From Spirometra erinaceieuropaei (lineage: Eukaryota; Platyhelminthes; Cestoda; Diphyllobothriidea; Diphyllobothriidae): 64,000 bases of DNA. The translations under genes and the position numbers were made by a program. This document shows positions 1 through 61,885 of this stretch, in pieces; the stretch's first letter is position 1; each line of letters begins with the position of its first letter. The DNA lies in the NCBI GenBank assembly GCA_902702965.1, contig CACRXP010000032.1, positions 1,523,347 to 1,587,346 on the forward strand. Direction: 5' to 3'. The notes beneath the pieces are model-generated. The model was not told the origin of the DNA. It worked only from the letters and a program-made list of their open reading frames with translations, and searched no databases.

Positions 1-2559
1 CAGCTCTATTGCACACTCCTTTGCGCATATGGATTTTGCTGAAAACTATTTTTTAAATGCAATTACACGGACCCTGTAAAATGCACGCATAAAGCACATT
101 GTAGTAGTTTCAATGCTCTTCCTACCCTAACAGAGATAAATTAACGTTGGCCTGCGGAGGCACGGGCATTAATTGACTCCTGATTCGCCTTAACATGGTC
201 CTCCTTAAAACGATATCCATGAATGCCTATCATGGCTGAATAATTTCATGGCTGAGAGATTATTTGGCCTTCCACACTTTGTTTGCCAGTCTAGAAAGCA
301 GGAATATTCAGCTCTTCCTAATGACTGCGTAGATGATTGAGGTCCTATTTTGCCCCTTTCCCTCTTTCAACCTCAAAAACATGAATGGAAATTACACATT
401 GTCTGTCTTTATGTGAAGCAGTCTGATGACTTGGTTATTGGGCCCCATGTTCAAAGTGGAATTAATTTCCAGCTTAGGTCATGCCTCATAAAGGTCACCG
501 GAAAAGGGACTTCCACCTGATACCCAGAAGTCAGTAGAATGCGCTCTTGGGCTGCATAACTGCCATTCCTGAATACTTCGGCATTATTATCAAAGGGTAT
601 CATAGTTTCGACACTTTGGTATTAGTCCGCTTTAAAGTCTCACTTTCTCTCTTTATATAGTAACGCCATTTTACTAAAAGTTGCAAACCTCATTATAACG
701 TTCTTCGTTTACCTTTATAATACGCTGATCAACACCCTGGTTTAGGGACGTATATATGCCTGCATTAAACTCCTGGTATCTTATTTTGCTTTTCAGTTAT
801 TTTCCAATTTGGCTTGAAAAGTATGGATTCATTTTAAACAATGCCCTCCAAATGGTCTTTTCTGCTGCCGATATTTTATGTGATTTTTAATTGATATCCT
901 GATATGGTAGACCTTTACAACAGTCAAACAATTTTGTGATCAAATTCTGGATAAATTTATTCATCAACTTTAGTCTTAAAAAATGGCTTCAAGTTTCGGC
1001 CGTCCCATGCGCAGTCTTTTAGTATGACAACGTTCCGTACTAGCTTTTCAGGCACAATACCTTGTCTCTAAAAAGACAATGACACAGAATTCAGTCTTAC
1101 CAGTGCTTGGGTCAACATGAAGTGAATTTTATGATTGAGACGTCACAACTTCCTGAACGTCAGAAATCGCAATTCCAGGACGTCCTAAATCGTCTGTCTA
1201 CAGTCTACAGAAAATTCGCACACACGCCCTTCCTTGCAGTTCGTGGCTTTTAACTTCCTCAGAAATTAGTCGTTAACTTTAAGTAGATTAGTTTGTCTGG
1301 GATTAGTTAACGTCCGTCGACTACTGCGAAACAGCCGCACAATATTGCTAAATTGCCAGCAGCCAGTCAGTGGCATACGCGTGGTTGGCACGATACACCA
1401 TACTAGCACCTGGACTATTAAGATTGATATATATATATACCAAAATCTTTATAAATCTTTATCTGTGCATCAAATCTTAAAAACAGATGCATTTACTCGA
1501 TACTCAACAGACTATAAAAATAAATATGTGCATGCTTTCTGTGCAACATCTTCGCATACATAGTATAACCGGTGGCTCACATAAAAGAACTGTATAATGT
1601 CGTCATACTTTGCTGAGCCTGGTGAACCGAACACCGAGATTCGGTCTTCAGTGAGTTATATTATGAATGCCGCCCAAAGTTTGATCAGGAGCTCATGATA
1701 GAATTTCTCTCGACGTCGCATGCTATACACAAATCACCTACTGAACTTGTAGACAATCGTGCAATCCCTGTGCTCAGGTTCGTACGCATACATCATACAA
1801 TTCGTGCATGAGGAAAAAACATCCGTATACGGATGGGTTCGCATCGAAATATTTCTATTCATTGTACCTTATTTACAGACAAAAATATAGACTTTGATCT
1901 ATGGAAGACATTACATGTCACATACGTTTGCATAGAGTTTAGACTGTTGTATCAGCAGTAAAAGACTGCGAGGGGAGAGACTTAAACTCCGTTGAAGTTG
2001 AGGTCGACGTCATTTAAGAAACAGTTTCCTCGCAAAATGTTTTCAGTGAAATTCTGCAGTGAAAACGACCGGACGCCATAAGGATTAGAACATAATTCAT
2101 TCAATGTCACTTTTGTCATCTCGGATTCGCGGACTTAAAATTCCTGAAGTGATATAGGCTTTCGGCATTCGTAACATTTACTCTAGTGTAAACGACAGTA
2201 TCATGAGACAAAACTGCGATTAGATTAAACATGAGTGTGGGGCTTCCATCCGGCGCCAACGAAAACGCTTTTAGTGTAGGCTGACACAAACGAATATCTA
2301 TGGAAAAATTCTTATTTGATAAGATTTTTCATGACGGCAGTGCTGGAAAGCGATAACACTAGCGATTTATGCAGCGTTATCTGAAGTTTAGCGTCCGTCC
2401 TCCGCATTACGCCATTATTTGAATTAAACTGAATAAACCCGCCCAGGATTAGAGACAGTTGTAACGTTGTTCACCTTCTATTACTCATTTGAAAGCAGTA
2501 CATGCGACTGTGGATACCAGCATGTGGTAAGTCCAAAGTGTCATAATCTTAGGCGATAG
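1..2559. other. No recognisable gene or repeat
   Basis: AT-rich sequence with frequent stops in all frames. I see no open frame with protein-like composition, no paired splice signals and no clear repeat shared with the rest of the window. Only short open stretches of about 60-70 codons occur, which is what chance gives at this base composition. Confidence 0.5.
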
Positions 2560-2879
2560 ACAGCAGAATCCCAATATCAATCAAGAGTGCAGATTATAAT
2601 TTAGGCAACTCTATTTCGTTATTTAGTATGTCAACGCCCAGAAAATCCGGTGCGCATTATCAACACCTCGAATAGGATAGAGTTTCTTCAGCTAAGTGTC
2701 TTGTCAAAAGTCAAACTGTTTTATCAAGTACTTAAGGGTTGCATTAACAATCTACCCTGCAACTGAAACCCGCAGGGCACACGCGTTGTTTTTAAGGACG
2801 AAGTTTTGTCGGCAGTCTAGCTTTTTATGAACATGTGCTTTTTACTTGCGGACGGACCGGTTAATATTTATGGAGGAAA

Positions 2880-4540
2880 AGCTCACTATGCAATCTGTAC
2901 ACTGTTAGGTAATTGCTTACATTGTTTGGGCCAAATAAATAAGATGAATGTTGGACGTTTTATGCTGATATGCGCTGCACCTTTCATAAAAATTAATATG
3001 GGCGAAAAAGGGTGACAAACTTTAAATAAAACACACAATTTAAGGACTTATATGGCATTTATTATTAAGTTTGCTGTACATATCATGGCTTACATATTAA
3101 TGAAAAAGTTAGTCCACATGTGATAAAGCCTTCATCAACCTATGGCAGAAAACCACGTTTTCCATGCTATACACGAAATTAAATGACCACATGCATATCC
3201 CCAAAACAAAGTTTCTGGTTGCGTTTTTTCGCCGGAGACCAATATCACATAGTCCTGATAATCAATACGTGTTGCTTACTGGTTTGCAAGATAACCACGC
3301 AGATAAACACAGAAAATAATTTGAAATTTTCCTAATTATAAATAAAGGGTGACAGACCCTCAACGTGAGTGAACAATGAGTGCCCAAGAGTAGGCAAATA
3401 TATACCTAACTTATTGAACGGCCAATCTTGAGTAAGGGTCTAATTTGCAGCAACGTCGTAAACTATGAATTTTATTATTCCAAAAGCCTCCTATATGGAC
3501 CTGAACTGTTCCACTGAGTACTTGGGATTTTCTTTAATGATTTATTCCTAACTTGTAAAGCGCAAAGCAAATATGTTGTAGACATTGCAGTTTAAAATAC
3601 CTCCAAATGTATGTAGCACTTAAAATCGTGTTTTACATACACATAGTCCGTGAATGCAACAATGTGTCGACCGTTAGATATAATTTTTATTTGTTAATCG
3701 GTCATTTGTGTTCATCGTGCAGTACGCGCAAGCTAAGTGTTTTTACATCCAACACGTTATAATATGGGCATTTCCCTAGTATCAGTTGCTAATAAGCCTT
3801 TCAGTTTTTTAAAAAAATTCATGTGTTCCAAAAAGCCCTACTTATTTGAATCGAAATACAAAAAATATGAGAGTTTTGTATGCAACATATTACACGATAA
3901 GTTACATATATCATTATCATCAATTGCGACGTAATTGGGCATCTGTAGAAACCCTCATTTGCCTATAGGCGAGACCCACGTTTTCCATACAATGCATGTT
4001 ATCGAATTACCAATGTATGTCCTCGAACCAATGTTACTGGTTGGATTACTTTGAGAAGGGCTGATATACTATGTTTGTTGTTCGCCGTATGCGCCAGTTG
4101 CTTGTTTTTATGATGAACACACAGCGATCAATCTTCATATTACGTGGCATTCATTTGCTTATTTTGTTAGCCTGCCTAGAAAAAATAATTGCGTGCGTTA
4201 CTTTGTTCCGTAAGTGTATTACTGAGCAAGAATTTAATTTCCAATGGCGGTCTATGTCAGTTCTAGTTTACAATCGGTATTAAATAGTTCAGCCATTTTG
4301 CTCAAAAATGCACGTTTTTAAAAATGATATGTTAGTTGAAGTGGTAGTGCAGCTCTGCCTATCCATTAAGTTTGTACTTTTTATTGTACATTGTAATTAG
4401 TAGAGCCACCTATGTGCTTATGTCCATTGAACATCGAGTGACCTTCGGAAGGCGGTTTCACGTTTTACTCCGTTCGTCGTTCTACGCGCTATGTCAAATT
4501 ATTTCTTGAAAATGGTCAGATGGTTTGGGATAACTGCGAG
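2880..4540 (+). repeat. Two tandem units of about 0.82 kb upstream of and across P1 exon 1
   Basis: A recognisable anchor (ccacgttttccat and its surroundings) occurs at 3153 and again at 3976, 823 bp apart, each preceded by a similar 'cctatggc/gcctatagg' stretch. Other anchors near 2888 and 3713 repeat with the same period. The second unit carries P1 exon 1. In the first unit the equivalent position has no usable start codon. The same organisation is found in the other duplication copy, so the tandem event is probably older than the large duplication. Confidence 0.55.
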
Positions 4541-5377
4541 ATTCCAACTTCATTCACTGCCTATCCACATGGCCTCTATAATACGTAGATTTACTTTTTA
4601 TATCTAGACAAATGTTGCGCATACTGAGCGCGAAAATAACAGCTTTTACTCTAATAAGAATGGTGATTGCAGAGGTCATGCGCCGAATATTTTGAATTTA
4701 AATGAGGACTTTAATTTCCTGCTTGTTAACGTTTATTTAAAGCATGTCCTAAAACAAACATTTATTTTAGAAACCAAAACGTGCCCTGATGATCAAGGCA
4801 ACTTCCATATTTCGAAGATAGCCGAGCATCTTATCAAACGCGTCTTGTATTTTGCTGTAGTGGGGGAAATTTTCGACTACCAGAACTGTTCGTACAACAT
4901 TACTCTGAAAGGCAAAACTTGGGTTACTTTTTGTTTTCAGTTGAAAAATTCAACTTGCAAAACCTATGATGAATACTTCTGCAAAACTGTTTGTGATAGT
5001 GCGCTGCTCTCAATAAATGGGGTAATTGCATTCCTTTGGTTTAAACGCACTACTAACTTTTAAAATATCACGAACCAATCTAGATTACTTAATTCTTTAG
5101 GAGGAACCTGATACATATGAATCAACAGATATTCCCATCTACGTAACTCTAAAGATTTCCAAATGGAATACAGGACTTTTTGGTCCAAACATTGTTGGAA
5201 TTTCGGAAGTTGATTTTCCGGATATATTATCACGCGTGACGTTGTCGCCATGGTCCTGTCCGGCCAATTATATTGGATTGACCTCAAATATTAATGCGAA
5301 AAAAAAACTACATGATACAAAATCCAATGTACGGCGAATCGGTTCATTGTGAAGTCGACCGAAAGTTTTTGGTGTAG
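4113..5377 (+). CDS. P1: unknown cysteine-rich secreted protein, three exons, frameshifted near the C-terminus
   Basis: Exons inferred as 4113-4209, 4675-5021 and 5101-5377. Exon 1 starts at an ATG conserved in P2 (MNTQRS) and encodes a hydrophobic signal peptide (HLLILLACLEK). It ends in phase 1 at a perfect GTAAGT. Exon 2 is 347 nt, ends in phase 0 at GTAATT, and carries motifs such as KTCP, HISKIAEHLIKRV, the sequons NCS and NIT, and STCK. The 79-nt second intron has an ACTACTAAC branch point and ends in TTCTTTAG. Exon 3 encodes a conserved KIS.WNT..FG.NIVGIS.VDFPDIL block. A run of nine A at 5299-5307 shifts the frame by one relative to P2 and P3, so translation stops at 5350 instead of the TAG at 5375. 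This is either real decay or a homopolymer assembly error. The exon pattern shared with P2 makes this a genuine gene. I recognise no family; secretion is inferred from the signal peptide and sequons. Confidence 0.7.
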
Positions 5378-6339
5378 GGTGGAAAAACATATTTTAGATT
5401 CTCATATATTTGTACGACATTTTGCGCGTAATCAACATATTTGGCAGTTTCGGTAAATAAACCGAAAGTAATTTTAGCTTTTGCGAATTCCTGAGACGAG
5501 TGTCCGCTAACTACGCCGTCATCTATAATGTCATAATACTGCGCAAAATTACACAGCCCTCAGCTGGCAGGAAATATGAATTATGCATTTGGGTTTAAAA
5601 CTAATCCTCGTGTTGCAAATTTATTAAAAACAGTATTGCCTATTTTGTAAATATCAACGTAGTATGCGATCGTTCCAAAAGCGCGATGGGGCATCGTTTT
5701 CAATAGGAACAGGAATTTTAAAATTCCTGAAGTGACAACCGGGTTAATCTTGTCAAATAAATAAAACGACTACTTACATTCAGCATGCTCGAAGTTTTTC
5801 CATATTCCAACTGAACTCCTAAAGGTTCGCATGGGTCTCCACATATGTTTACTCACATAGTCAAGAACAGCCAAAATGTCTATATTTATTTGAAAAAGGA
5901 CAAGAATAATCTTTTGCACATTCGGCGCCCTAGAAACAATAATACATTATGAAGGAAACTATCCTAAATTTTTTTAGGATTCAAGTTGCAGTAGGTCTGA
6001 AAACATTTTATGCTAGGTGTTTAGGAAATTTGCAGCTCACAGTTAACCTCAAAATGTACAGAGTACGATTACTGCAACTGAACAGACACTACGTTACGTT
6101 AATCGTTTGCCAAACAAATCCCTTGTTGTAATTTCATGAGACGTTTTTTACACTACCATTATTTTCATGTCCATCGCTTTGTAATGCCGTTGAAAAAAAA
6201 GTGGTTACGGAATTCGTAATCCCTCAAAAAAGACGGCATGTATACTTCGAAAGTGCTCATTTCTGATATAATCTTGAATAATACTGGCTTCCATCTATGG
6301 TACAGCACTTATCCATACGCGCAGGCCTTGTAACATAAA

Positions 6340-6600
6340 AAGGGATGTAAAGTGCGTAACCGATCTGATGCAATGTTGGCCTAACTACTGAAATTCGTTT
6401 TCGATTAGAAAGGATTACAAAGGTGGGGTTGTAATGTTGCTTATCAAACGAAATAATCCCGTAGTATTTCGGATTCGGTAGGGTGTCGGATTTTGGATGA
6501 ATTTTTTTCGACCTCATATGGAAACTACACTCCGTCAAAAATGACCACATAAGAAACATGTATTTTTCACATTGAATTGACAATTTGTTCTTTGGCTGAC
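6340..6600 (+). mobile_element. MITE arm fragment (TA-inserting foldback family)
   Basis: From about 6340 the sequence resembles the left arm of the element at 39080: a CTGATG-like box, 'aatgttggc', then 'gaaat.cgttttcgattag(g/a)aagg', followed by the conserved 'gtgtcgg' and 'aaaatgacca' positions. The opposite arm was not found, so this is a truncated copy. It is absent from the matching place of the 23.5-30.4 kb duplicate, so it arrived after the duplication. Confidence 0.5.
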
Positions 6601-7059
6601 TCTTGAATGCCAGTTGACGCACTAGGTTTTTCCGATTCATAGACATCTGTTGACGCAAAGCCGATCAATTTAACACAGAAGGATCTTAAATAGGACATAT
6701 TAGTCAAAAATGCTGCAGTTTGCATCAAGGACATTCGTTAGTAAAATTAACGATTTCGTTTGCTTCAAATGTGTGCTAGCTTACTGTAGAGACGACTTCA
6801 TAATCTTAATTCGGACTAAAGAAATGTAAAGCAGCTTAATATATCCTAGTTAAATGGGTTGAGTAATGTACAATTTATAAATATCCACATGTGAATGGAG
6901 AGGAACAAAAATGGCGGCTCAATTTCAACAGCCCGCCGAAATCTGCATTGTATTAAACTGATAACTGCTCAGAAAATTCCCTGCAATTGAGACACGCCAC
7001 ATGAAGTCATGATAAAAAACGAATAATGGATTAAAATAAGGATGTGATGGGCCGCTGCA

Positions 7060-8301
7060 TTGATAAGTAATTTGATTATCACCTCCGGGTTTGTGCATCA
7101 AATAAGCGGTACATACAGCATGTATTTAAAAGTTACTAGCAATTGCACAAACAGTGTAACTGTATAATATTTTCAGGAAACATTGCTCAGTAGGGAGAAC
7201 ACCGGTGTACATTCCCAAGTCTCTTAGATTTTTTTGCACAATTACTAAAATAGTCTATTCCAATTTAGGATTGGTGCACTGACTAACATTACAATTTTTA
7301 CAAAGAGAGCAAATTGCGTTAAAACAGTGTATTTTGACTTAACGCTAACATTTAATCACGTGGTAATCCAACCGCAAAATGCCACACATAACATATTCGG
7401 TCCCGAAATGTTTTTCTTATCTATGTCAACAAGGATGCTTTGATAACATTGTGATGTCCACCTTATGATGTCTCTTTCAGAGAGGAGCATGTCTGAAATG
7501 CAGATGCCACTTATTTTTTCGAAAACACCCGTCTGTGCATTATTGAAGACACGGACACAAAACGATTCTGCAAAAAAGAATGGCGTGCTCAACGAAAGTC
7601 TGCAGACGTCCCTGTAGAAAAAGTCATTATTGGCGTCCCTTCATAACATCTGCTTTATTTGTCACAACCTCCGATTAAAAAGCTACCAAATTTAAGTTAG
7701 TATCTAAACGAAGAATGTAGTCCACTACTCCAAACGCACTCTACCTGTTTTTCCCTGACAAGCTCTCTACTGAATATTACACCTTTCCCAGGAATGTATG
7801 TGCAACATCGAATGTGCACGGTTGAACATATTTGGTAACCTATAAGTGGTGATCTGATTGCTTGTGAGCGTGCATACGACGTTAATTGAGGTAATTTTCT
7901 CATTGGTGTTTTAAATTTTTACACACGCACAGATGGGCAGCGTGCACTTATTAACAAGTGCTCCCACCCCACGTGTATCCGAACGTTATAAGTCGAGGAG
8001 GAATTGAGGTAGATATAGCGCAATTGGGCTTTGCGACATGGGTTTTCGAAGCCTGCGACCACAAGGAAATTTGATGCTGATGTGTATATCTACGAATAAC
8101 TGTTTTTTTAGTAGTGTCGGTTAAAGTGTTGAACGTTATTTTACATAACTCCTTCAAATGCCCTGCAATGGCTTCATCCGTGGTGTTATCAATTAACCGA
8201 AATTTCATTTGCGGCAGTCCTGCGGCATTTGTCATGCCTGACAAGGAGGCTTCGCTTTCTGCCTCGTGAAGGTGCAGGCGGCAACTGAATAAGCAAATCA
8301 T
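7060..8301 (-). pseudogene. Decayed opposite-strand exons conserved between the two duplication copies
   Basis: Several minus-strand open stretches (8301-7951, 7903-7697, 7567-7356, about 7250-7060) align in the same frame with 29860-28830 in the duplicate. The clearest is 7567-7356, which follows a TTTTTTGCAG acceptor present in both copies and contains RWTSQCYQSILVDIDKKN here against RTSQRYQIILIDVDEDS there. The 7250-7060 stretch keeps MLYV..LI...NP.VI.KLLI.A in both copies but has stops here; the 7567-7356 stretch has stops in the other copy. Each copy being broken in different places suggests one old convergent gene downstream of P1/P2 that is dead in both. I cannot name the protein. The 116-codon 5' part (8301-7951) is only partly present in the duplicate. 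Confidence 0.35.
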
Positions 8302-8629
8302 TAAATTTGAATAAATGCCTTTGGGACAGGATTAAGCAGTTTTGACAATAACATTTCAATGTGTTCAAACTGAGCTGGCCGCATAGATATATTTACGGTG
8401 CATGCTGGTTTTAAAAATCATGAACTATATGTTCCCACGTTAAATACATCTTCCAAGCCATTCGGATATCATTCTTAAATACCTACCTTTTTCCCAATCT
8501 TCTGGGATCACGGGTGATATTACTGGGCAATATTATCATTCCCATTTCCATGGAATATGTCGTACGTGCAGTATTTTGAGTTCAGTGAATATAATAGGAT
8601 ATTTTATTGTGATAGGCAAAGGCTAATAT

Positions 8630-10339
8630 CTATACAAAATTCCGTTCACAGGAATTAATAGGAAAAACAATTTCTACAACCGGACGAACAACACCTCTGG
8701 ATTTTCTTATTATACCTTCTATCCAGAGCTTCTCTCCGGCTTTGTAGTTGCGAGCAAACACCTCCTCTCCCTCGCGAAAGTAATATTTTGTTTTTCGTGG
8801 AACTCGAGCTTCCGGTTGTAGGTACTGTAATCGCGTATCCGGCTGTCGTCCCAAAAACCGTTCGGCTGGTGTCTGGCCCCCAAGATCACTTTTTGGAGTT
8901 GTTCGATAGGCAAAGAGGAATGTGTTGAGATACTCCAGTTTAACACCAGTGTTCCACATCTTTTTCATCGCTCTCTTGAACGTGTCGACGAACCGTTCTG
9001 CCTGGCCATTTGATTGTGGATGGAATGGTGGTGACGTCACATGTCGAATTCCCCATTTCTGACACAGTTGTTGGAAGATTGATGACGTGAACTGAGGGCC
9101 GTTATCCGTCACAATCTCCGTCGGGATGCCGTATCTAGCTATTTGTTCTTCCGTCTTCCTTGCCGTGATATCAGCAGTAGCTGCCGAGACTTCGAAAACT
9201 TCTAGCCACTTGGACCATGCATCGACAACAATTAGAAACATTTGGTTGAAAAACGGACCCGCAAAGTCCATATGGACTCTACTCCAAGGTCTCGTTACCT
9301 CTGGCCATGGCACGGGCGGTACTTTCGGTGGGTTCTTAGCCTCACGTCCACACGGGCAGCAGCTTCGAACAAAAGATTCCACGTCGTTATCAATTCCCGG
9401 CCAATATACGTACTTGCGGGCCAGTTGTTTCATGCGGGTCATACCCTGATGTCCGGCGTGGAGCTTCCGCAAAACTTGTTGCTGATATCTGGCTGGGATC
9501 ACCACTTTACCATCGTACATTATGCAGTCTTCCGTGATATACAACTGTTCCTTTCTGTTCCTGAAAGGCTTTATGGATGGGTGTACTTTGTCGTCGCTGG
9601 GCCAACCGTTCCGAATAAACTCTTTCACCTGGCGCAAAAGTGGGTCTGCTGCAGTGGTGGCCCTGATGTGCTCGGCTGTGAGCGGCAACTGTCGGATGAC
9701 ACCTCTAAACTCGTCATCATCTTGCATTAGCGAACTGGCGACAACCACGTCTTCTTGATTTTCGTTGCTTGTTCTCAGTCGCGATAAAGCGTCCGGAGCT
9801 CCAAACTTCTGAGTAGGCACATATTGGATCTGAAAGTCATAGCTTTGAAGAATAGTACTCCAACGTTGTATTCTCCTAGCTACGTTCTGGGGAACACCAC
9901 GGTTAGTACCCAAAAGGAACTTCAGTGGCTGATGATCAGTGTGCAGTGTGAAGGGTCTGCCATAAATAAACAGGTGGAATCTCTGTACGGCGAAGATAAT
10001 GGCCAGTGCCTCCTTTTCAATCTGGCTATAATTCCGTTCTGCCTTCGTCAGTGACCTGGCGGCATGCATGATTGGCTGTACTCTCCCATCTGCGTCCTTC
10101 TGAAGGACCACTCCGCCTAAACCGTAATCAGAGGCGTCTGCCTGGACAATGGTTTCTTTGTCAGCCTCGAAGTGTGATAGCATAGTTGAGTCGCATATCT
10201 TTGTCTTTATGGCATCAAACGCGTTTTGACATTCTGGAGACCAAACAAACTCCACGCCCTTGCACAGAAGTCGGCTGAGTGGAGGTTTTAAACTGTGCAA
10301 CCCAGTGATGAACGGACCGTAGTAGCTGACCAACCCCAT
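8630..10339 (-). pseudogene. Gypsy pol fragment: RNase H and integrase
   Basis: An open frame of 569 codons. Near the N-terminus it has the RNase H/thumb start (SYYGPFITG), then the RNase H acidic motif QADASDYGLGG, the EKEALAI segment and TDHQPL. Around residues 290-330 is an integrase zinc finger of H..H...C..C type (HAGHQG ... SCCPC). The catalytic core shows MDFAGPF, VTDNGPQF and NGQAERFVDTFKR, so the D, D and E are all visible. A conserved post-integrase stretch ends the frame. It is in the same frame as the RT upstream but separated by TAG at 10354-10352, with the usual LQSF..L-type junction immediately after the stop. The enzymatic motifs look intact, so the nonsense change may be recent. 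The product would integrate element cDNA. Confidence 0.9.
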
Positions 10340-10351
10340 GAACGATTGCAG

Positions 10352-11107
10352 CTACTTCGTGTTCTTCGGCACTTTCATGTTCTGGAATGCCTTCACCCTC
10401 TCTGGGTCAGGGGCACGCCCATTCTCGTTGACTATGAACCCGAGATAGTGGATCTCCTTCCGCAAAAATTCACTTTTCTCCATATTGATCTTATGGCCGT
10501 AGTCGATCAGATTGTCCACAACCTGGTCCAGCCTTTGAGTCAGCTCTTCCTCTGAGCTACCGACAACCAAAATATCGTCCAGATATGCAATAGTCCCGGG
10601 AACATTCGTAAGCATCGCATCCATAATCTGCTTGAACACACTAGGCGCCGTTTTCACGCCGTAGTTTAGGCGAATGTATCTAAAGAGACCCTTATGCGTA
10701 TTTATGGTCAAAAGCTCCTGTGATTTCTCGTCCACCTCAATTTGCAAGTAAGCTTCGGATAGATCGATCCTTGCAAAGACTTTCCCTCCATTTAGAGTAG
10801 CAAAAATCTGCTCTAAGGTTGGCAGCGGGTAATGATAATCTTCTAGTGCGTCGTTCAGGCCCGTTGAATAATCCGCACATAATCGTATTTGTCCGTTGGG
10901 TTTCTTCACCGCCACGACTGGAGCAGCCCAAGCTGAATAATTGGTAGGATAGATTATGCCCTTTGTCTGTGGTCTTTCTAGTTCAGCTTCTACGGACGAC
11001 TGTACCGCAAACGGGACTCGTCGGCTCTGCTTGAAAGCTGGCTTTTTCTCCGGCTTCACTTTCAAACTTATCTTCGTTTTCGTACACCTGCCGGCCGCGT
11101 TCTCCAT
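10352..11107 (-). pseudogene. Gypsy pol fragment: reverse transcriptase
   Basis: A 251-codon open frame. It begins with a basic linker, then 'PVVAVKKPNGQIRLCADY', the motif A region 'ARIDLSEAYLQI', the motif B region 'APSVFKQIMD' and the catalytic box 'AYLDDILV', followed by 'NMEKSEF' and 'HYLGFIVNENG'. Its N-terminus overlaps the protease frame by about 40 nt in a different frame, and its C-terminus is cut by a TAG. The active-site aspartates are present. I treat the frame change as mutational decay, because the overlap has no obvious slippery heptamer and the copy is already broken by the stop; a programmed shift cannot be fully excluded. Confidence 0.88.
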
Positions 11108-12393
11108 GCGTTCATATACTTATTCTTCAGGACCTCCTCAGTAGTGTTGTGCACCGCGCTGCAAATTTCGTCAAAGGGACGGTTCCACAATCCCAGTTCG
11201 GAGATCGTCTTATTTCCGAGAAGATTGTTACGGGTCTTCGACACATAGGCATCTGCGAGGCAAGTCATGTTTCGAAAACTGACAGTCGCCTGGAAAACGC
11301 CTTCAAATTCCATACGCGTCTCGCTTGACGCCCACGCTATGATCTCTGATGGTCTCAGTTCTGGAGAACCGATGTCCTCCCATGTGCGCATGCTGATTAT
11401 GGTCAGATCAGAAGCCGTGTCTACTTGTAATGTGATCGGCTTTTCGTTAATCTTCACTGTCAGGTATTTCCGGTGTTCATAGTTGAGTACATGCGAATCG
11501 TCTTCTAAAACGACATGGCAATTCTTTCTTGGGCTAGTGTGCGCTGCTCTGCAATGTGAAGCTTTATGGCCAACACGGGAACATTTGTAGCACTTCCTAC
11601 TACGATAGGGACATTCACTCACGTAATGCCAGCCGCCGCACAGCCAACAAGCCATCTTTGGCTTCCGTGGAGAAACTCTATTTGGTTGTGGTTGTCTCGA
11701 TTTTGTGTCGAAAACGTAAACTGGCTGACTATTTGTGCTTCCAATAAGCGGGGTGTCTTGCTTGATATTTGTGATTCGGACACATTCCTCTGCCAGTTCC
11801 TGTACTGTCATATCGCCTTTCTGGTCTAGCTGGGCGAGTAAACGCGTGCGCACATCTGCATCTTCTGGCAACGTCAACGACTTAATGAAGAATAGTGCTT
11901 TAATCTGTGTGCTGGTGGCCTGTTCTAGCTCGGCTTGTTGGAAAGTATCATTAACTCGACCGGCCAAGTCAAAATAGTCTTCTTCAGGCTTACGTTCTAG
12001 CTTGAAACATTCATAACGTCGATTAAATAAAGACTTTGTAAAACAGAACAATGCTCTCAAATGCTTGACTGTGTCCTTAAACGAGACATCTGATGGTTTC
12101 TGAGGCAGAATGAACTTTACGTACCGCTCGTGTTCCCGCTGGGCCAGTTTTAGCAGAATGATTTCCACTTTCGTCTTGTCGTCCAGTTCTGCTCCCTTCT
12201 CTTCGAACAGTCCTTCGTACTTTCGAAACCAGGCTTCGAAATTCACGCCTCCCTCTGGATCGTAAACGAACTCGTTGATCCGTTGTTCGACCTGTTTCCT
12301 CTTGTTCTCTCTGGATGCCGGTCCCCAATTTCGTTGCATTTCCGTGAGTAATGTCATGAAGCTGGCCTGCTGGGCCTCCAGTATGTGCTTCAT
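11068..12393 (-). pseudogene. Gypsy gag with zinc knuckles plus retropepsin
   Basis: An open frame of 441 codons. The first 200 residues are a charged, helix-rich capsid-like segment typical of Metaviridae Gag (YDPEGGVNFEAWFRKYEGLF). Two zinc knuckles follow near residues 247-280: an unusual CX2CX3HX4C and a standard CX2CX4HX4C. The retropepsin begins near residue 310, with active-site DTASDLTIIS and the downstream hydrophobic-Gly box NNLLGNKTI. The frame ends in RPAGVRKRR after leaving the pol frame. Gag packages element RNA; the protease would process Gag-Pol. The first ATG lies about 40 bp after the primer-binding site, which supports the start choice. Confidence 0.88.
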
Positions 12394-12420
12394 TTGTTCT
12401 TCTGATATCCTTTTGCTGCA

Positions 12421-12432
12421 CCTGCGTCGCCA
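12421..12432 (-). promoter_or_regulatory. Probable primer-binding site of the Gypsy element
   Basis: On the minus strand the bases TGGCGACGCAGG begin two bases after the LTR end (...CATAACA). TGG at this position is the usual complement of a tRNA CCA tail. I cannot name the primer tRNA from sequence alone. Confidence 0.6.
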
Positions 12433-12434
12433 GT

Positions 12435-12861
12435 TGTTATGACCTGGCAGGAAGGTAGGACAGGAAGAGAGCCGGTTCGGAGGACAAGCACTTTATTGGA
12501 ACTTGCGAACAAGAGGGGGTTACAACTCGTAAGAACGTGTGCTATTTATTGGCTCACGTGCGTTCTGGAACATTCCGTCCAATGACGTGCCAGTCGTAGA
12601 GGGCGTTCTAGAATGTTCCTGTCCAGAGCGTGCTGGTCGCTGATTGGCCATCGCGTGCGCGATAACCCCGCCGCGGAAACGTCTGGAATGTTCGGCCATC
12701 CATTGATTGGGCCGCACACGTGAGCAAAGCCACCACGCGTGCTCGGCGCTGCAGTGCGCGCCGGTCGGTTGTCTAACTTCGCGCGTGACTCAGGTCGCCC
12801 ACTTGGTCCTTTAATTGGCGCCTTAGGCCGTGGATCTACGCCGTTTTCACACTCCATAGCA
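12435..12861 (-). repeat. Single 5' LTR of the Gypsy element
   Basis: Minus-strand reading starts TGCTATGG at 12861 and ends GGTCATAACA at 12435, giving near-inverted TG...CA termini and a length of about 427 bp. An AATAAA polyadenylation signal lies at 12497-12492, followed by GTGCTTGTCC and a CT-rich tail, as expected for an R/U5 region. The outer edge was placed where a SINE-like repeat shared with 36 kb and 56 kb takes over. No matching copy exists at the other end of the element. Confidence 0.6.
12492..12497 (-). terminator. LTR polyadenylation signal AATAAA
   Basis: AATAAA on the minus strand about 55 bp before the LTR/primer-site junction, followed by a GT/C-rich downstream element. 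The position fits the R region of the LTR. Confidence 0.5.
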
Positions 12862-23220: not shown

Positions 23221-23859
23221 CCATATTCGCAGAACATTCAGACACCATATGGGTCTATTGGCCATTGGACAGCTGGGTACGTCATAACGACAACTTTAAA
23301 GATTTATGCTAGGTGATATAAAATCGAGGACCTGTCCTTTGCAGTGCGCTGTTATTTGGATAACTTGATGAAAACTGAACGAGATGGAAGACAGTCACAA
23401 CCTTAAGCCTAAAGAGTGTTATTTACCCCGAATGCGGCAGTTGAAAGCGGTATTCAGGACACAGGACTTTCGAAAACAGCAACTGGTAATTCACAAATTT
23501 CATAATCTTAAATAAAAGGCGGCAGAACTCTAACGTACAACAGGAGGGTATATCCTAATTTGTGCAGCTATATTTTCTAGTTATGTCAGTAGCCAGGAAC
23601 TACAACGAGTACTATCGTAAAATTAATAGGATAACGTTTAACATTCTGAAAGCGTCATATAAAAAGTCAAACTGCAACTATACTCTCAACTGCAACGCGT
23701 AAGGCATACAAGATATGTTACAGAACTCAACACTGTTAACATTATTTAGCCTTTTGTGAGCGTGTTATGCAAAGAGGTACTTCGTGAATGCAATAAGGAG
23801 CCGTCGACTCGAGGTGATTCTCACTTGCAAATAGAGTAGGAGTATTTATAGAGGAATAG

Positions 23860-25500
23860 CTCGTCATGCAATCTGCACATGCTTAGGCGACTGTGAACTT
23901 TGTGTAGGCCAAGCAAATAAGTCGCTTTTTAAGTTTTTTTGCTCGTTGTAGTTTTATTTGATGATGATATGCACAACAGTTCTAAAAGATATCATGTATT
24001 AAAAAGGTCGACGTATTTTGGGTGACACGCCAAAATATGGGGGTTTCATTAGGCATTAATTATTTTTAGTTAGATTTTGTTGCTAAAATTTTGATGACAG
24101 TGTTATTCGGCCTATGGTAAAGCCTTTAATTGTCTACAGGAGAAAACCGCGTTTTTCATATTATACACGGAAATACATGGGTAAAAGGAAACAAACAAAT
24201 AAGGAAACAATGTTAATGTTTGGGCTGTTCTGACAGAGGCGGATAAACTTTGATACTCAGTCGCAATGCTCGCCATCTGCTTTTTTAAGTTAAACACACA
24301 AAGAAAGTAAACAAATATCATAGATGTAAGCAAAGGGCTACAGGCGCCCAACATAAATCTGGAATGCATGTCTTAAGTAGGCAAGGATATTCCTAAATTT
24401 TTGAATCCAAACCCATTAGCTGGGGTCTAATTTGTCAAAGTATAAAGGACAATAAATGTTATCATTCCGAAAGTGTCATATATGAATTCGAACAGCCTTG
24501 CAGTGCTGATTCGTTCTTTAGCGGAAAGGCGCAAAGCATATACAAGTATTACTGGTTTAAGTATTTTTTAAAATATTCACCATTTAAAAAAATGGTTCTG
24601 CAGACATGTACTCCATAAATGCAACAAGTGTAATCGACACGGGAGGATTTTAACTTACGAGTCGATTATAAGTGTTTAAAACGAAAAAAATGTTCAGCCT
24701 GCAATTCATGCATGCTCACGAAATCCGCATTTTGCTCATGCTAAGAAAATAAATCATACCTGAAGAGTTTTAGGCATCCAGCACGTTAAAATAGTGCATT
24801 ACTGTAGTATTCGTTGTCGCCGATATGCGACGTAGCTTTTAAAAAATTAGTGTGCTTGTAAAAGGCTGAAATAGTTGAGACGAATAACAACAATATAAGG
24901 ATTTTATATGCATTGTATTACACAGTATGCCGCTTGTATCGTTAACATGCTAATAACATTATTTTTGAGCATGTGATGAAATCCTTATTAACCCATAAGG
25001 GAAACCCACGTTTTTCATGATGCGCATACAATTAAATTGCCAACGCATGTCATCGAAACAATCTTACTGGTAGGATTAATTTACTAGAGGTTGATATACT
25101 TTGTTTGTTATGTACAGTCTGCACCAGTGGCTGGTTTTTAGGATGAACACACAGCGATCAGTCTCGCTGCAGCGTGGCAGTCATTTGCTTACCTTGATAT
25201 TCTGCCTAGAAAAAAGTAGTGCCTGCTTTATTTTGTTCCGTAAGTATTTTAATCAACAGAACTTTAATTTTAAATGACGTTTCTGATTTGAAATCGATAT
25301 TTAAAAGTGACATAGTGGTCAAAGTAGTTCTGTAACCATCCCTATCCATTACGTATTTGCTTTTTGATGTACGCTGTGATTATAAGTAGACGTCTACCTG
25401 CTTTTACCCATTGAACATCGACTGAACTTCGGAATGCAGAGAGTTGGCTTTAAACTTCAGCTCGATCTTCGGTCCTATTATGGGGGCCACTAGTTATGCC
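23860..25500 (+). repeat. Two tandem units of about 0.85 kb around P2 exon 1, the first with a dead exon 1
   Basis: The anchor at 24147 (ccgcgtttttcat) recurs at 25006 (ccacgtttttcat), 859 bp apart. In the second unit the P2 start codon lies 137 bp after the anchor. In the first unit the aligned bases at 24290 read TTA AACACACA instead of ATG AACACACA, 143 bp after its anchor. The promoter/exon 1 unit was therefore duplicated and one start lost. Part of a third unit may lie at 23510-23860. Confidence 0.55.
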
Positions 25501-27262
25501 AAACACGGAAAGGTTCACATAAACCGGAAAATTGCACAATACGGACCCCGTTCACTGGAGAAGTGATGCAGGATCTATAAGTACATACAGGTATTCTTAT
25601 AATACCTAGACAAACATCACGCGAACTGAGGACGCAAGTAACAGCAATCATGAATGTTAGAAAAAAGAGCACTTCAATGCCTACGCTGACTGCAGAGACA
25701 ATACGCAGAATACAGTAGGTGGGCTAACAAATAAAATGTCAACGGAAATTCCGAAATGCGTTTTCGTTTCGAAAAAGTTTAATTAGGTTGGGTTGTAAAA
25801 TTGATCATCAAGCAGCATAATTCGAGAATAATTCAGTTACCTCCGGATGCCAGCTTTAGAACGACTTCGCCCCGTTTGCATGCAAAACTTATACTCTGTA
25901 TAAAATAACTACTTATGTAGCATGTATCTTTCTTGCTGATTTCCGATGTGCCTATATATTCAATTATATTTCATAGAAATCATATATAACAATATTCATT
26001 ATTTTACTCATTCGGTAGAAAATTGTGTTTTCTTCCGATTTTATACTTGGAGAAAGGGCATAATTCAGTTTTAAAAAAGTTTCTTATGAACCGCATATGG
26101 TCCTCTTTTAATAACATGGAGAAATTTATGGTTACAAGTACGCAGAATATAGATTACTTGCAGTTTGTAAGCCCTGAATGCCGGTGTAACGACAGATCGG
26201 GGAATTATAAATGTTCTTAAAAACTGAGTTATACCCGTTCCCCGAGTATAGAAGTGGAAGACAACGCAATTTTGAACCGAATGAGCAAAAGACTAAATAT
26301 TGCCATGTATGTTTTCTATGAAATATAATTGAATATTTAGGGGCATCGAAAACCAGTAAGAAAAATGTATGCTAATTAAGAAGCCATTTTATACAGAGTA
26401 TAGGTTTTGCATGCAAACGGAGAGAATTTAGTTCGAAAACTGACATCCGGAGATAACTGACTTATAACCAAATTATGCTGCCTGCTAATTAATTTTTACA
26501 ATCCTACCGAATTAATCTTTTCTAACCGAAAACGCATATCGGTAATTTCGGTTGACATTTTATGAGTGAATCCACCTACTGTATCGTACGTGTAAATGAG
26601 CACCTTCACTACCTGCTTGCTAACGTGCACTGTTGGCATGTTTCAAAACTAACACTTGTTTTAGAAAGCAAAATATGCCCTGGAGATCAAGGCGACTTTC
26701 ATATTTCTGAGATTGCCGAGCATCTCATCAAACGCGTCTCCTACTTTGCTGTGGTAGGTGAAATTGTGGACTACCAGAACTGTTCTTACAACATCACCTT
26801 GAAAGGTAGAATCTGGGTTAAGGTTTGTTTTCAAATGTCAAATTCGACTTGCAAAACGTGTGATACGTATTTCTGCAAAATTGTTTGTGATAAAGCCCTG
26901 ATTTCAATGAATGAGGTAATTGAATTCCCTATTGCGAGTGCATTACTAACTTTCTTTAGGAAGAAAAAAATTCATTTGCCCTAAGGCAGATTCCGCTTCA
27001 CGTAACCATCAAAATTTCCAACTGGAAGACGGAACGATATGGTTCAAATATTGTTGGAATTTCGAGAGTTAAGTTTCCTGATATACTGACCCTCGTCAGA
27101 GTGTCGCCATGGTCCAGTCCGGCCAGTTACCCTGGACTCACTTCAAGGAGAACCATGAAGCAAATCCACATGATTCAGAATCCAGTATACGGAAAGTCAG
27201 TTCATTGTGAAGTTGACCGGCAATTTTTAATGCAGAGTGGAAATCCATATTTTAAACCCTAA
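25143..27262 (+). CDS. P2: unknown cysteine-rich secreted protein, three exons, interrupted by a MITE in exon 2
   Basis: Exon 1 is 25143-25239 (97 nt, as in P1), with ATG, MNTQRS, a hydrophobic stretch (HLLTLIFCLEK) and a GTAAGT donor in phase 1. Exon 2 runs 25698-25712, is broken by an 869-bp MITE, and continues 26584-26915. Without the MITE and one TA it is 347 nt, equal to P1. The 44-nt second intron (26916-26959) has a TTACTAAC branch point and a TTTCTTTAG acceptor. Exon 3 is 26960-27262, 100 residues and TAA. Visible are ICPGDQG, HISEIAEHLIKRVSYFAVVGEI, the sequons NCS, NIT and NST, a cysteine-dense STCKTCDTYFCKIVCD, and SNIVGIS.VKFPDIL in exon 3. Predicted length without the insert is 248 residues. 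No other lesion is visible. A truncated product starting at an ATG in the MITE end (26562) is open but would lack the signal peptide. I recognise no family. Confidence 0.75.
25713..26581. mobile_element. Foldback MITE (copy a) inserted at a TA in P2 exon 2
   Basis: Starts CAGTAGGTGGGCTAAC and ends in the inverse ...CCACCTACTG. It is flanked by TA at 25711-25712 and 26582-26583. Inverted arms of roughly 400 bp include the boxes 'atgtcaac.gaaattcgaaatgcg', 'gca.cataatt' and 'cagttacct..ggatg'. No transposase frame. A TA target duplication with CAGT at the tips is what Tc1/mariner-type elements show. The empty site is preserved in P1. Confidence 0.9.
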
Positions 27263-27774
27263 AGTATTTGTATTTCTTTGGCGAGCAATATAGATTTGGC
27301 AGTCGGTCAATAAGCCAAAAGATGATAACCTTTTGCAATTTAATGAGGCACCCTTAGCCTGACTATATCGTCAACTAGGATATGATATTACTGCGCAAAT
27401 TTCAAACCCACTCACTAACCGGCAAAAACGAATTAATCAGCTGAGTTCAAAACTAGCCATTGTGTTCTAAAATTAGTCAAAACAGTATTACTTACTTTCT
27501 AAATACTAATTCGGTACGCGGGTGTTTTTAAAAACCGGGTGGGCACATGTTGAATAAGACTAAAATAACTGGGATTTTTAAATACTTAGAGTGACAGCCG
27601 TCTGTTATCCTACCAAAGAGATAGAACGACTACTTACACTCAACTTGTCTAATGTCTTCGTCCATATTCTACGAGAAATATTTAATGCTCAGACGACTCT
27701 CCGCATATTTCCACATATACAGCTAACATCAGCCGAAATGCTTACAGTTAAAGGCAAAACGACTAAAATACTTT

Positions 27775-28530
27775 GAAATTTCAAGTTGGCAAACACGTGT
27801 TTTCGGTAATTCTTCGTCAGGCCAATACAGTTACATAAAGAAATGCAGACGTACAAAATTAACAGTATTTATAGGTGTCGCAAGGGCTATTAAGTCATCA
27901 ACATTCATCTTCCCCACGCCGCTCGCATGACGAGGTCAGCGAGTTTTGGTAATTAAAACTAGGGGAGGGGGGTAAGAGAGTCTTTAAATGATGTTCTTGG
28001 AGTGATTACACGGAGTACTCATCAATGTAATTAGGGATGTGAGGCGGCATGTCCTCATCACTTGAGGTTCGCGTCCACCAGGGCAGAGAGAGCACTTGTT
28101 GCACGGTTTTCTGACAGCATAACAACAGATTCGTTAGCCGTATAGCCACTGCCTCGGCCGTTGCTAGTATCCATCGGCGTAGGCCTTCCGAAAAGCTTGT
28201 TGGTGTCTGATAGATAACCTGAAATGCTTTCCTGGCATCGACTTAGTGATCCGTACAAGAATAGAACACGAAATCGATCGGGTTTCATCTCCGTTTAGTA
28301 AGACGGGCATATGTTCACGCACCCTCTTTGCCAGACATCTCGTTGTATGGCCAATGTATCCGGCTCCACAGGAACAAGTGAATGAATAGATGCACATTTA
28401 TGTGGCCTCCAACGGTAGTCTGTCTTTACCTGCTTAGTGCAAATAGGCTTACACATGCAAGATTGATTGCATGGTAAAATGTTATTTACAGGCAAAGTAC
28501 ATGTACTGCGCGTCTTGCATCACAGGCTCA
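27775..28530 (-). mobile_element. Penelope-like element fragment (PLE family 1), GIY-YIG end
   Basis: On the minus strand a GIY-YIG-type start YSFTCSCGAGYIGHTT lies near 28390, followed by CLAKRVREHM. After a frameshift comes the downstream ESVVM region near 28110, then the 3' non-coding part and the terminal hammerhead-like motif. The same layout is seen at 38491-37767 and 54400-55035. The reverse transcriptase is absent (5' truncated). It interrupts the right duplication copy, whose match to the left copy resumes near 28535. Confidence 0.75.
27788..27823 (-). ncRNA. Hammerhead ribozyme motif at the PLE terminus
   Basis: Minus strand: stem I GGC/GCC, core CTGACGA (position 7 variable), short stem II ending in CC, GAA, then stem III AACA-CG-TGTT and a cleavable U before GCC. 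Stem III keeps four pairs although its loop differs from the 41.5 kb copy. Minimal hammerheads in Penelope-like elements are established; activity here is inferred. Confidence 0.6.
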
Positions 28531-28827
28531 TCAAAGACATTCAGAGAGCAAGATAAATTCTAAGCACGAGTTTCGGAAATAATATGATTGCTCGGTTTAA
28601 CTGCTTTTCAAAGAAAAACGTGGTTGATTTTAGGTCACGAAATTATCTTTACACTATAAGAAAATTTCATAGTTGAATAAATGTGTCTTCATACTTTAGA
28701 AATGCATGCTCTGAAGGGGTTGCAATAACTAAAAACAGTATTGAGAAGTCTGTATCTTATTGACGTGGCAACAGCCTAGACACATCACGGCGATTCAGAC
28801 AGACCGCGCGAAGATATCAGCAAAAGA

Positions 28828-29860
28828 CTAATCAGTCGTTAAAATTGACGAGTGATGGACAGACGCCTTGATGAGTAATTTGCTAATCACCACTGGGTTT
28901 TTCCAGCAAATTATCAGTACATACAGCATACGTTTCCAGGTCACCCAGCAGTTCCACAATAGGTTTAAATGACAGTTTTCTCCGATAAATGCTGAATTAT
29001 TCAAATTGCTAAGTAGGAGAAATACCGTCGCCCACTCTTCCGTCAATCTGTCCTTCTTTGCGATAAGAACGATACACAATTACTAAACTAGTTTCTTTGT
29101 TATTTGTTATGGTTTGGTACTATAAAGAACATTACACATTTGCGGAGATAGCGAATTGCCTTAGAACAGATTACGCTGGCCAAACGTTAGCTTTTAACTA
29201 TGTAATGAATCTGTCGCGATATGCCTTATTTGACATGACTGGTCCTAGAATGCTGTCCTCATCCACGTCAATGAGGATGATTTGATAACGCTGTGATGTC
29301 CTCACAAACCGTTTTCTCTCTATGAGAAGCATGCTTGATGTTTAGATCTATGTATTTTTCAAAAACCATATGACTTATGGAAAACAATCTTCAGGACGCG
29401 AGCTCAAAAGGGTTCTGCAAAAAAGATGGCATACGCAGCAAGCGTTTAAAATCGTCCTTGACGAAGGAATCATTATAAGTGTGCCATCATAACATCTGCA
29501 TTATTAATCACAAAAGTCTATCAAAAAACGACCAAATTTAAGTTATGATCTTAACGAGAAATGCAATCTTTTACTCCAAACGTACGCTAACTATTATTCC
29601 CTCACGTGCTTGCCACTGAACATTAAAACCTTTCTCGAGATGCATACGCAACGTCTAATTTAGACCACTTAACAGATCTTGTAACTTATAAATGGTGAAG
29701 TGATTTCATTATTCGTTCACTTGCCTTGCGATCAATTCATTGGCAATGTACACCAATTAACCGAAATTTCCTTTTGGTAGTCTCCCGGCATGGCTTAAAT
29801 GCCTGAAATGGAGGCACCGCTTTCTGCCTACGGAATGCTTAAATTAAGTGACAAACACTC
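28828..29860 (-). pseudogene. Opposite-strand decayed exons, right duplication copy
   Basis: Counterpart of 7060-8301. The stretch 29079-28828 is open for 83 codons and aligns with a stop-broken stretch at 7250-7060 (MLYVLIICWKNPVVISKLLIKAS). The stretch 29414-29198 follows a conserved TTTTTTGCAG acceptor but contains TGA and TAG codons where the left copy is open. About 200 bp of the 5'-most open stretch of the left copy are missing. Protein identity unknown. Confidence 0.3.
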
Positions 29861-37766: not shown

Positions 37767-37801
37767 GGCGAACATATGTTTCGGTAATTCCTCATCAGGC
37801 C
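37767..37801 (-). ncRNA. Hammerhead ribozyme motif at the 3' terminus of PLE family 1
   Basis: Minus strand: GGC, CTGATGA, stem II GG-AATTA-CC, GAAACATATGTTC, GCC. Stem II has two clean pairs here. One A is missing after GAA relative to the 41.5 kb and 27.8 kb copies, which weakens stem III. Confidence 0.5.
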
Positions 37802-37920
37802 TGTACATTTACATGGGAAATGGTCAGTCTAATCGTCGACAGGGTATGAATATGTCTAGGGGCAGGGTTAAGCGGACTCCATGTTCCCACGCCACCCGCA
37901 TGACGGAGTCAGCGTATAAT

Positions 37921-38003: not shown

Positions 38004-38065
38004 GATTAGATTGTAGGCGCTCTGAGTGCGTGTAACTGCTCTCCGTGCGTCGGGCCGGCGTGCGA

Positions 38066-41563: not shown

Positions 41564-42878
41564 AATTTATTTATTTATTTTTATTTGTTTATTTTCATAT
41601 TTATGCGTGACGATCAGCTGAAACGACATTTTTCCTGTAAGTACATGTCTCGAGGAACCATACCTCACAATACCATCGGCTAGACTTTGTGGGCAGTTGA
41701 CGGTGTGGTGTGCGATCTTATGTCCTTCTTCAAGACTACTTTCAACGTCTGTCAGACATAAGGATTATTTTCGCGTAGCAGTGTATGATATTGTTAGTTA
41801 ATTTCTGTTGGATGGCCATATGCCGTCTTACGTAGGGTGGTAGGCTTACAAATGCTCACTACGTCAATGAAGTCCCTTTTAAAAATCATTTTTGGTTAAG
41901 ACAAATTTTTACATATTGCAAGCATAGCAGTCGTTCAGTCAATGTTCTATTCTAGGCAGTGTTTAAAATTTCCAACTAGATTACAGAAAGTTTTGGGTCA
42001 AATACAATCGGCCCTTTGGAAATTTACGTGCTAGGTTTTTATTTAACATTGGTGCTGCACAATAGAAAGGTGACGCTAAAACGTACAGTAGAAATATTTC
42101 AAGATGCGATGTACGACAGGTCGGTGCATTGCAGCATTGAGCAATGACCTCTGATATTAACACTAACCAAATCTTTCAAAGGTTTTCTGCGAAATATACA
42201 TGGAGCACGCACTTTGAGCATCAGTGTAGGAAAACAGTGAATTTCACTTTCTTATATTATAACGTGATGCTTAATTATTTTGTTGTCCGCGTCCTAAAAA
42301 CTGAATTGGCGCAGCAGGGAAGGGGAAATAATGTGACGGGAAATACTCTAAAATAAGATCTGCTCTCTGTTTACACCACCAGCTGCAACAGTTAAACATG
42401 TTTGGTCGCTGAGGAGAGCGGTTCATTCAGCCAGTGTCCTCTGGGCACTCATCAGTAATATGTTAATATTGCGTTCAATTTCCTGTCATCCTGAAATCAT
42501 TTTTTTGTGATCAGTTTTTAGAACTGTTCAGAAACTAATCATTTTTTACGTATGATTAAAACCTCATGATAGAATTCGACCGACGAATTGCCGCAATTAT
42601 TCAAAGTGATATATCAGGCAACTATTGTTTGCATTCGTTGTTGAATTAGTTACTCCGTTAACCAAACGGGTCTGTGGGCATCAAAACCTTTATTGGTAGG
42701 GACATTTTTTACGAATTGTTGGTTTCGAGTGTGATCTGCTCTACTTACAGCAACATAAACGCACGAGAAACGAAAATACTAATTATGTCTCCAAATACCT
42801 CCATGTCCTTTTCTGAGGATATATTTTAATTTTTAGTTTAAAACTTTGGACCCCAAAAGACTTAAACAATGATTTCAT
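41564..42878. other. No recognisable gene
   Basis: AT-rich DNA starting with a short (TTTA)-rich stretch at 41566-41595. A 70-codon plus-strand stretch at 42144 has no supporting feature. Confidence 0.4.
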
Positions 42879-61129: not shown

Positions 61130-61885
61130 TTACAGGTAATTGTCTAGTTTCAATTCGAAAACCGAACGATTGATTTCACAATGAACTGAACCTCCGTATA
61201 ATCGATCCTGAGCCATGATATTTCGTCTGCCGTTTGTGTTTATGGAACCTCTGAGATAACTGGCCAAACACTACCGTGGCGAAAATGAAATATTTGATAA
61301 TAGTTCAGGAAAATCAATCTTAGAAATTCCAGCTATGTCTGAACCATACTGTTCTGTATTCCAATGCGAAATCTTCAGCGTTGTCTTGATTGGAACTTCT
61401 TTTATTTGAAACGGATTCGAGAAGTCCTAAAGATGTTGAGAGCTTGACTGGATATACAATATGTTACAAGTTATAACGATAATATTAACCGAAGCAGTAT
61501 TAGTCCATTGTATAAGGATACTATGATAATGAGACATGTAGATTACCCGATAGAATGAAATTGAAACTTGGTCACATATATTTTCGCAGACATATTCTTC
61601 ATATTTTTGTACGTTGAGTTCGCAATTGGGAAACATGATTTAACCCAAATCCTGCCTTGTAGAATGACATTGTATGAACACATATAGAGGTCCACAAGCT
61701 CGTCGGTCACAGTAAAGTGTGAAACGCGGTTCACTAGATATTTAACAATGTCCGTAATGCGAAATATCCCTTCATCCTTCGGACAGGTTTTACGTCCTAA
61801 AACCAGTGTTCGTTTTAGTAAGCGTTTGGTTAAAGCAATTAGGAAAATACGGAATGCTCGACTGTTTCGTATCTCTCCCTTTTAT
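61130..61885 (-). pseudogene. P3: third paralogue of the P1/P2 secreted family, broken
   Basis: Minus strand. Exon 2 is about 61885-61547: FLIALTKRLLKRTLVLGRKTCPKDEGIFRITD..KYLVNRVSHF aligns with P1/P2, then CSYNVILQGRIWVKSCF and NSTYK. A one-base shift near 61600 moves the frame to YEEYVCENICDQVSISFYR. The donor GTAATC and phase 0 match P1/P2. Exon 3 (61426-61130) follows TCTTTAG in phase 0: LKISHWNTEQYGSDIAGISKIDFPELL, a TAG at 61273-61271 where P2 has Ser, then SVHCEINRSVF and a TAA. The second intron is longer (about 120 nt). No convincing signal-peptide exon was found, although a GTAAGT lies at 62286-62281. Two lesions and high divergence make it a pseudogene. Confidence 0.65.

What the first reader, a model, noticed from the sequence alone, without database searches (positions are those of the whole stretch)
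4113..5377. A previously unrecognised three-copy secreted protein family (P1, P2, P3)
Three loci share exon lengths (97 nt and 347 nt for exons 1 and 2 in P1 and P2), intron phases 1 and 0, splice signals, a signal peptide (P1, P2), N-glycosylation sequons and a cysteine-dense exon 2. I recognise no known domain. Family expansion with rapid decay is what one sees for parasite-secreted host-interface proteins, but that role is inference.
Basis: partly seen in the sequence, partly recalled or inferred. Interest (0 to 1): 0.75.

Follow-up and report, generated by a model that had tools for sequence, protein, structure and literature searches.

The report
Tapeworm secreted cysteine-rich protein family
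A stretch of probable tapeworm DNA carries one intact and several decayed copies of a gene for a small, probably secreted, cysteine-rich protein of unknown fold; worm-specific secreted families are a known kind of thing, but this one matched nothing in the searches made here.

Summary
Exon 2 is not 347 nt: the supported 3' splice site is a conserved TTTTAG 96 nt further on, giving 251 nt in P1 and P2 and 250 nt in P3. The 869-bp inverted-repeat element that would have split P2's "exon 2" then falls inside intron 1, and P2 is an open 216-codon gene: hydrophobic leader, 8 or 9 cysteines in the mature part depending on cleavage, 3 sequons. P1 changes frame at an A9 run in exon 3. A probable fourth copy (exon 3 only) lies at 41881-42144. 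dN/dS for P1-P2 is 0.31 over exons 2+3. P1 and P2 sit in an old duplicated block, not in a transposon. A neighbouring Gypsy reading frame is 87-91% identical to Spirometra erinaceieuropaei proteins over half its length, so the worm is probably Spirometra or a near relative. No Pfam, NCBIfam or PDB relative; the two protein-database searches found nothing but had limited reach. Best reading: a secreted glycoprotein family; its host-interface role is inference.

The parts
4113..4209 (+). P1 exon 1, leader-like N-terminus, phase 1 at its end
   Evidence: 97 nt then GTAAGT
4771..5021 (+). P1 exon 2 (251 nt; corrected 5' limit)
   Evidence: TTTTAG acceptor conserved in P1, P2, P3; third-position excess begins here
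5101..5352 (+). P1 exon 3; frame departs from P2 around the A9 run 5299-5307, so the end differs from P2
25143..25239 (+). P2 exon 1, leader-like, phase 1
25713..26581 (+). inverted-repeat (foldback) element with TA on both sides, in P2 intron 1 under the corrected model
   Evidence: self-complementary, 76%; ends CAGTAGGTGG and CCACCTACTG flanked by TA
26665..26915 (+). P2 exon 2 (251 nt)
   Evidence: 5'-most of 5 open in-phase acceptors; donor GTAATTG
26960..27262 (+). P2 exon 3 to stop
   Evidence: open 100 codons
62628..62733 (-).
   Evidence: ATG, hydrophobic stretch, GTAAGT
61547..61796 (-). P3 exon 2 (250 nt against 251 in P1/P2), frame broken near its end
61130..61426 (-). P3 exon 3 region, in-frame stop after 51 codons; 3' limit approximate
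41881..42144 (+). P4, probable relic of exon 3 only, 2 in-frame stops
   Evidence: tblastn E 6e-5; local score 82 against a maximum of 45 in 60 shuffles; 2 stops; below the inclusion threshold in the profile search, E 0.029
2506..8628 (+). duplicated block holding P1 (counterpart 23465-30362 holding P2)
   Evidence: chain of mostly collinear matches, 65-76% identity

Best explanation
A small gene family of a tapeworm (probably Spirometra or a near relative) encoding a secreted, disulphide-bonded, N-glycosylated protein of about 190 residues after removal of the leader. Three exons: leader; cysteine-rich part; second half with one cysteine shared by P2, P3 and P4. P2 is intact in the window; P1 is open up to a late frame change that may be real or a homopolymer error; P3 is dead and P4 is a probable relic. 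Shown here: homology, exon structure, purifying selection, sequence features. Inferred: transcription, secretion, disulphides, glycosylation. Further inferred: the product is released at the worm surface and works by binding an extracellular host partner, as excretory-secretory proteins do.
For: Splice signals and phases agree in the three main copies. dN/dS P1-P2 0.31 (bootstrap 0.19-0.50) over 144 codons of exons 2+3; P2-P3 0.19 (0.04-0.37) and P1-P3 0.41 (0.22-0.67) over 113 codons. P1-P2 identity is 79% in exon 1 and 203/252 in exon 2, against 67-71% in intron 1 and flanks. Of 8 phase-1 ATG-to-GTAAGT openings of 82-130 nt in the whole window, 7 end at the P1, P2 or P3 donor, the six most hydrophobic among them. 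P2 reads 216 codons without interruption; cysteines at 28, 37, 72, 87, 95, 98, 103, 107, 199 outside the hydrophobic core, sequons at 71, 75, 92. Gypsy reading frame 87 and 91% identical to two S. erinaceieuropaei proteins, each over about half the query.
Against: No transcript or peptide was tested. Exon 3 is only 70.5% identical between P1 and P2, no more than the flanks, and the 44 aligned columns of intron 2 are 77%. Exon 1 alone shows no significant constraint (w 0.75, 0.25-2.6), nor does exon 3 in P1-P3 (0.78, 0.39-1.7); synonymous divergence is high in the P3 comparisons (dS 1.95 for P2-P3). P2's leader is only moderately hydrophobic: 14% of 534 open ATG 30-mers in the window score higher. 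Two protein searches found no relative in a database that holds at least some Spirometra and Sparganum proteins. The structure models are too poor to use (mean pLDDT 37 and 41).
Confidence: 0.6

Rival explanations
1. The copies are members of the plerocercoid-immunosuppressive factor (P-ISF) family or of one of the other expanded secreted orthogroups reported for Sparganum proliferum (OG0000083, OG0003096, OG0010117, OG0011363, OG0011373), and act on host macrophages.
For: Probably the same lineage, and the same sort of description: cysteine-rich, glycosylated, secretion signal, expanded family (PMC8166898 passages; features here).
Against: The protein search with P2's exon 2 reading frame gave 2 word-sharing candidates and none with E <= 0.01; the three-copy search gave 33 candidates and none with E <= 10. 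This is weak: only about 84 of the 130 query residues belong to the corrected exon, admitted lengths only up to about 192 aa, relatives at 35-45% identity share few exact words, and I did not verify that P-ISF is in the database.
Confidence: 0.15
2. The whole set is a graveyard: all copies in the window are unexpressed pseudogenes, and P2 is open only because it died recently.
For: P3 is broken, P4 has stops, P1 departs in frame; an inverted-repeat element sits in P2's intron 1; no relative found among database proteins.
Against: P2 is open over 216 codons with conserved splice sites, and selection on the protein is seen in the P1-P2 comparison, although that cannot date the last functional moment.
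Confidence: 0.25
3. A secreted protein with an internal role (reproductive gland, eggshell or tegument structure) rather than a host-facing one.
For: A secretion signal says nothing about the destination; no call here distinguishes the two.
Against: Nothing specific; rapid turnover of copies is more usual for host-facing families (general knowledge, not tested).
Confidence: 0.25
4. The block is part of a dispersed transposable element.
For: The window is rich in repeats, and one foldback element lies inside P2's intron 1.
Against: P1 and P2 lie in one duplicated block; P3 shares the exons but not the flanks; introns and codon constraint are present.
Confidence: 0.03

Closest known systems
Plerocercoid-immunosuppressive factor (P-ISF) family of Spirometra erinaceieuropaei, orthogroup OG0000083 in Sparganum proliferum
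   Same: Reported as a cysteine-rich glycoprotein of plerocercoid excretory-secretory products, from an expanded gene family (PMC8166898, passages read); the predicted features here are of that sort
Other expanded secreted families of unknown function in Sparganum proliferum (OG0003096, OG0010117, OG0011363, OG0011373)
   Same: Lineage-expanded, predominantly with secretion signals, unknown function (PMC8166898, passages read)
   Different: Sequences not available here; membership untested

Membership tests
P-ISF family | Sequence homology to the cloned P-ISF | tested here: inconclusive
   No hit for P2's exon 2 reading frame at E <= 0.01, none for the three-copy alignment at E <= 10. The database holds at least some Spirometra and Sparganum proteins (5 such rows among the 120 listed), but P-ISF's presence was not verified and the sequence was not compared directly.
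P-ISF family | Cysteine-rich glycoprotein with secretion signal | tested here: met
   Predicted only: 8 or 9 cysteines in the mature part of P2, 3 sequons, hydrophobic leader. Not specific to the family.
P-ISF family | Present in plerocercoid excretory-secretory products; suppresses macrophage nitric oxide and cytokine expression | not testable with these tools
   Needs proteomics and assay. Features as reported in PMC8166898, passages.
Any Pfam, NCBIfam or solved-structure family | Profile match above the curated cut-off, or PDB sequence relative | tested here: not met
   Pfam: 0 families for spliced P2 at E <= 10; 2 of 5 exon pieces had one hit each, E 0.076 and 0.048, below cut-off. NCBIfam (bacterial and archaeal models): best E 0.1, far below cut-off. 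PDB best E 0.08, 0.97, 0.11, no hit; the chains have no evident connection.
Dispersed transposable element | Common ends and many copies | tested here: inconclusive
   Within the window: three main copies and one probable relic, no common ends seen. Genome-wide search not answered.

The most novel reading that the evidence does not exclude
A diphyllobothriid-specific secreted protein family with its own, undescribed disulphide-bonded fold, missing from current Spirometra and Sparganum annotations, that acts on a host partner independently of P-ISF.
Probability: 0.2. Interest if true: 0.6.

Novelty: new member of a known kind. Interest (0 to 1): 0.38.

Why it matters
Spirometra larvae persist in host tissue (general knowledge), and expanded secreted families of unknown function are reported in a close relative (PMC8166898, passages). 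A corrected three-exon model with one open copy gives something definite to look for in RNA-seq and excretory-secretory proteomes. If confirmed, it would be a further such family and a target for structure determination.

Tried and rejected
Rejected after first adopting it myself (note): that P2's coding exon is interrupted by the foldback element; under the corrected acceptor it lies in intron 1. A first dN/dS run that still counted 26 upstream codons as coding gave 0.43 (0.30-0.64) for P1-P2; the corrected run gave 0.31 over exons 2+3 and 0.36 (0.23-0.53) with exon 1.

Led nowhere: structure prediction of the exon 2 and exon 3 pieces (mean pLDDT 37 and 41), so no fold search was made. Alignment A1, given to the predictor, the protein search, the PDB profile search and the contig scans, includes 26 upstream codons that I now regard as intronic; the query has about 23 codons upstream and 23 downstream (intron 2 and beyond) of the corrected exon; searches also used pieces with upstream codons. 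This weakens those negatives. Contig scans: 95 stretches in viral contigs and 34 in genome contigs matched a pattern, 0 encoded a relative, as expected for a worm gene. Paper searches: nothing that I could connect with this family; only the top of each listing was seen, only open-access papers are held, and sequences cannot be searched there. Papers: PMC8166898, passages; PMC13104597 and PMC4262225, passages, nothing on this family in the passages shown; other papers, search listings only.

dN/dS rows dropped: P3 after its frame break in exon 2 and after its stop in exon 3; exon 3 of P1 and P2 beyond codon 61, just before the first gap; P3 exon 1; P4 altogether.

Full report
What is there. P1 and P2 lie in a duplicated block (2506-8628 and 23465-30362). 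The flanks nearest the genes and the first part of intron 1 are 67-71% identical; the 44 aligned columns of intron 2 are 77%. P3 shares only the gene. A profile search of the six-frame window found no further exon 2 above its inclusion threshold. A fourth exon 3 at 41881-42144 scores E 6e-5 by tblastn with P2 and 82 against a maximum of 45 in 60 shuffles, but E 0.029 with the profile, so it is probable, not certain.

Corrected gene model. In P1 that needs the second AG of GCAGAG; it is 1 of 6 open in-phase acceptors there. In P2 it cannot be had from the sequence as it stands: none of the 5 open in-phase acceptors gives 347 nt, and the 5'-most gives 251 nt. That acceptor, TTTTAG, is conserved at the same place in P1, P2 and P3 and fits phase 1 with exon 1 in all three. 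Upstream of it P1-P2 differences fall 11/7/6 on the three codon positions, downstream 9/13/27 (Fisher p = 0.024 for the third-position share and 0.042 for identity). P3 resembles P1 and P2 upstream only over the last 15-30 bases before it. These p-values are modest, but the P2 enumeration and the three-way conservation agree. The 869-bp inverted-repeat element with TA on both sides (25713-26581) then lies in intron 1 of P2.

State of the copies. P2 is open over 216 codons. P1 is open over 199 codons but leaves the frame of P2 around an A9 run (5299-5307) in exon 3; whether this is real or an assembly error cannot be told. P4 has two stops.

Is it a gene? dN/dS by the Nei-Gojobori method is 0.31 (bootstrap 0.19-0.50) for P1-P2 over 144 codons of exons 2 and 3, 0.19 (0.04-0.37) for P2-P3 and 0.41 (0.22-0.67) for P1-P3 over 113 codons. 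Against this: synonymous divergence is high in the P3 comparisons (dS 1.95 for P2-P3), exon 3 of P1-P3 alone is 0.78 (0.39-1.7), exon 1 of P1-P2 alone is 0.75 (0.25-2.6), and exon 3 is no more alike between P1 and P2 (70.5%) than the flanks. Overall the proteins were under purifying selection after the duplications. Of 8 phase-1 ATG-to-GTAAGT openings of 82-130 nt in the window, 7 end at the P1, P2 or P3 donor; the eighth starts at 45211 on the minus strand.

What organism? The Gypsy-type reading frame at 8630-10351 (the element probably runs to about 12492) has its two best protein matches in Spirometra erinaceieuropaei, 87 and 91% identical over 54 and 51% of the query (best 120 of 1623 hits listed). 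Penelope elements make up about 10% of the Spirometra and Sparganum genomes (PMC8166898, passages), and the window has GIY-YIG-like reading frames that I recognise from memory as Penelope-like. Spirometra or a near relative is the likely source; this is inference.

What does it do? The P2 product has a hydrophobic leader (no signal-peptide predictor was run). From residue 29 on it has 188 residues, 8 cysteines and a calculated mass of 21.6 kDa without sugars; if the leader is cut at A27|C28, which I judge plausible by eye, it has 189 residues and 9 cysteines. It has 3 sequons. No Pfam, NCBIfam or PDB relative was found. Structure models of the two exon pieces were unusable. My best explanation is a secreted, disulphide-bonded glycoprotein acting outside the worm's cells, most likely on the host side; only the sequence features and the selection are shown, the rest is inferred.

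Comparison with the known. PMC8166898 (passages read) reports expanded families of secreted proteins of unknown function in Sparganum proliferum, one of which contains P-ISF, a cysteine-rich glycoprotein of plerocercoid secretions. The features here fit that description, but a description is not a membership test. The two protein searches for this family found nothing in a database that holds at least some Spirometra and Sparganum proteins (5 such rows among 120 listed). They used pieces of which part is now thought intronic, with length limits, and reach only relatives that share exact 5-residue words; so they speak, weakly, against close relatives and not against distant ones. The genome-wide search did not complete (8 of 8 tries).

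Verdict. A real protein-coding family with one intact copy, in a known kind of family.

Noticed in passing
25713-26581, 30636-31614, 39078-40077, 47764-48766: Several related inverted-repeat (foldback) elements, arms 76-88% complementary; the copy in P2 intron 1 is flanked by TA. Shorter related pieces near 42904-43097, 44114-44257 and 46818-47046.
   Followed up: partly
8630-12492: Gypsy-type element on the minus strand; its reading frame 8630-10351 is 87 and 91% identical to two Spirometra erinaceieuropaei proteins, each over about half the query.
   Followed up: partly
37774-38432 and 54404-55025: Two copies, 82% identical over 662 columns in opposite orientation, overlapping reading frames that look, from memory, like Penelope-like elements with a GIY-YIG part.
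   Followed up: no
8335-8628 and 30067-30362: Segment of the duplicated block at 75% identity, above the 67-71% of intron 1 and flanks near the genes, with a long perfectly conserved run; not obviously coding by eye.
   Followed up: partly
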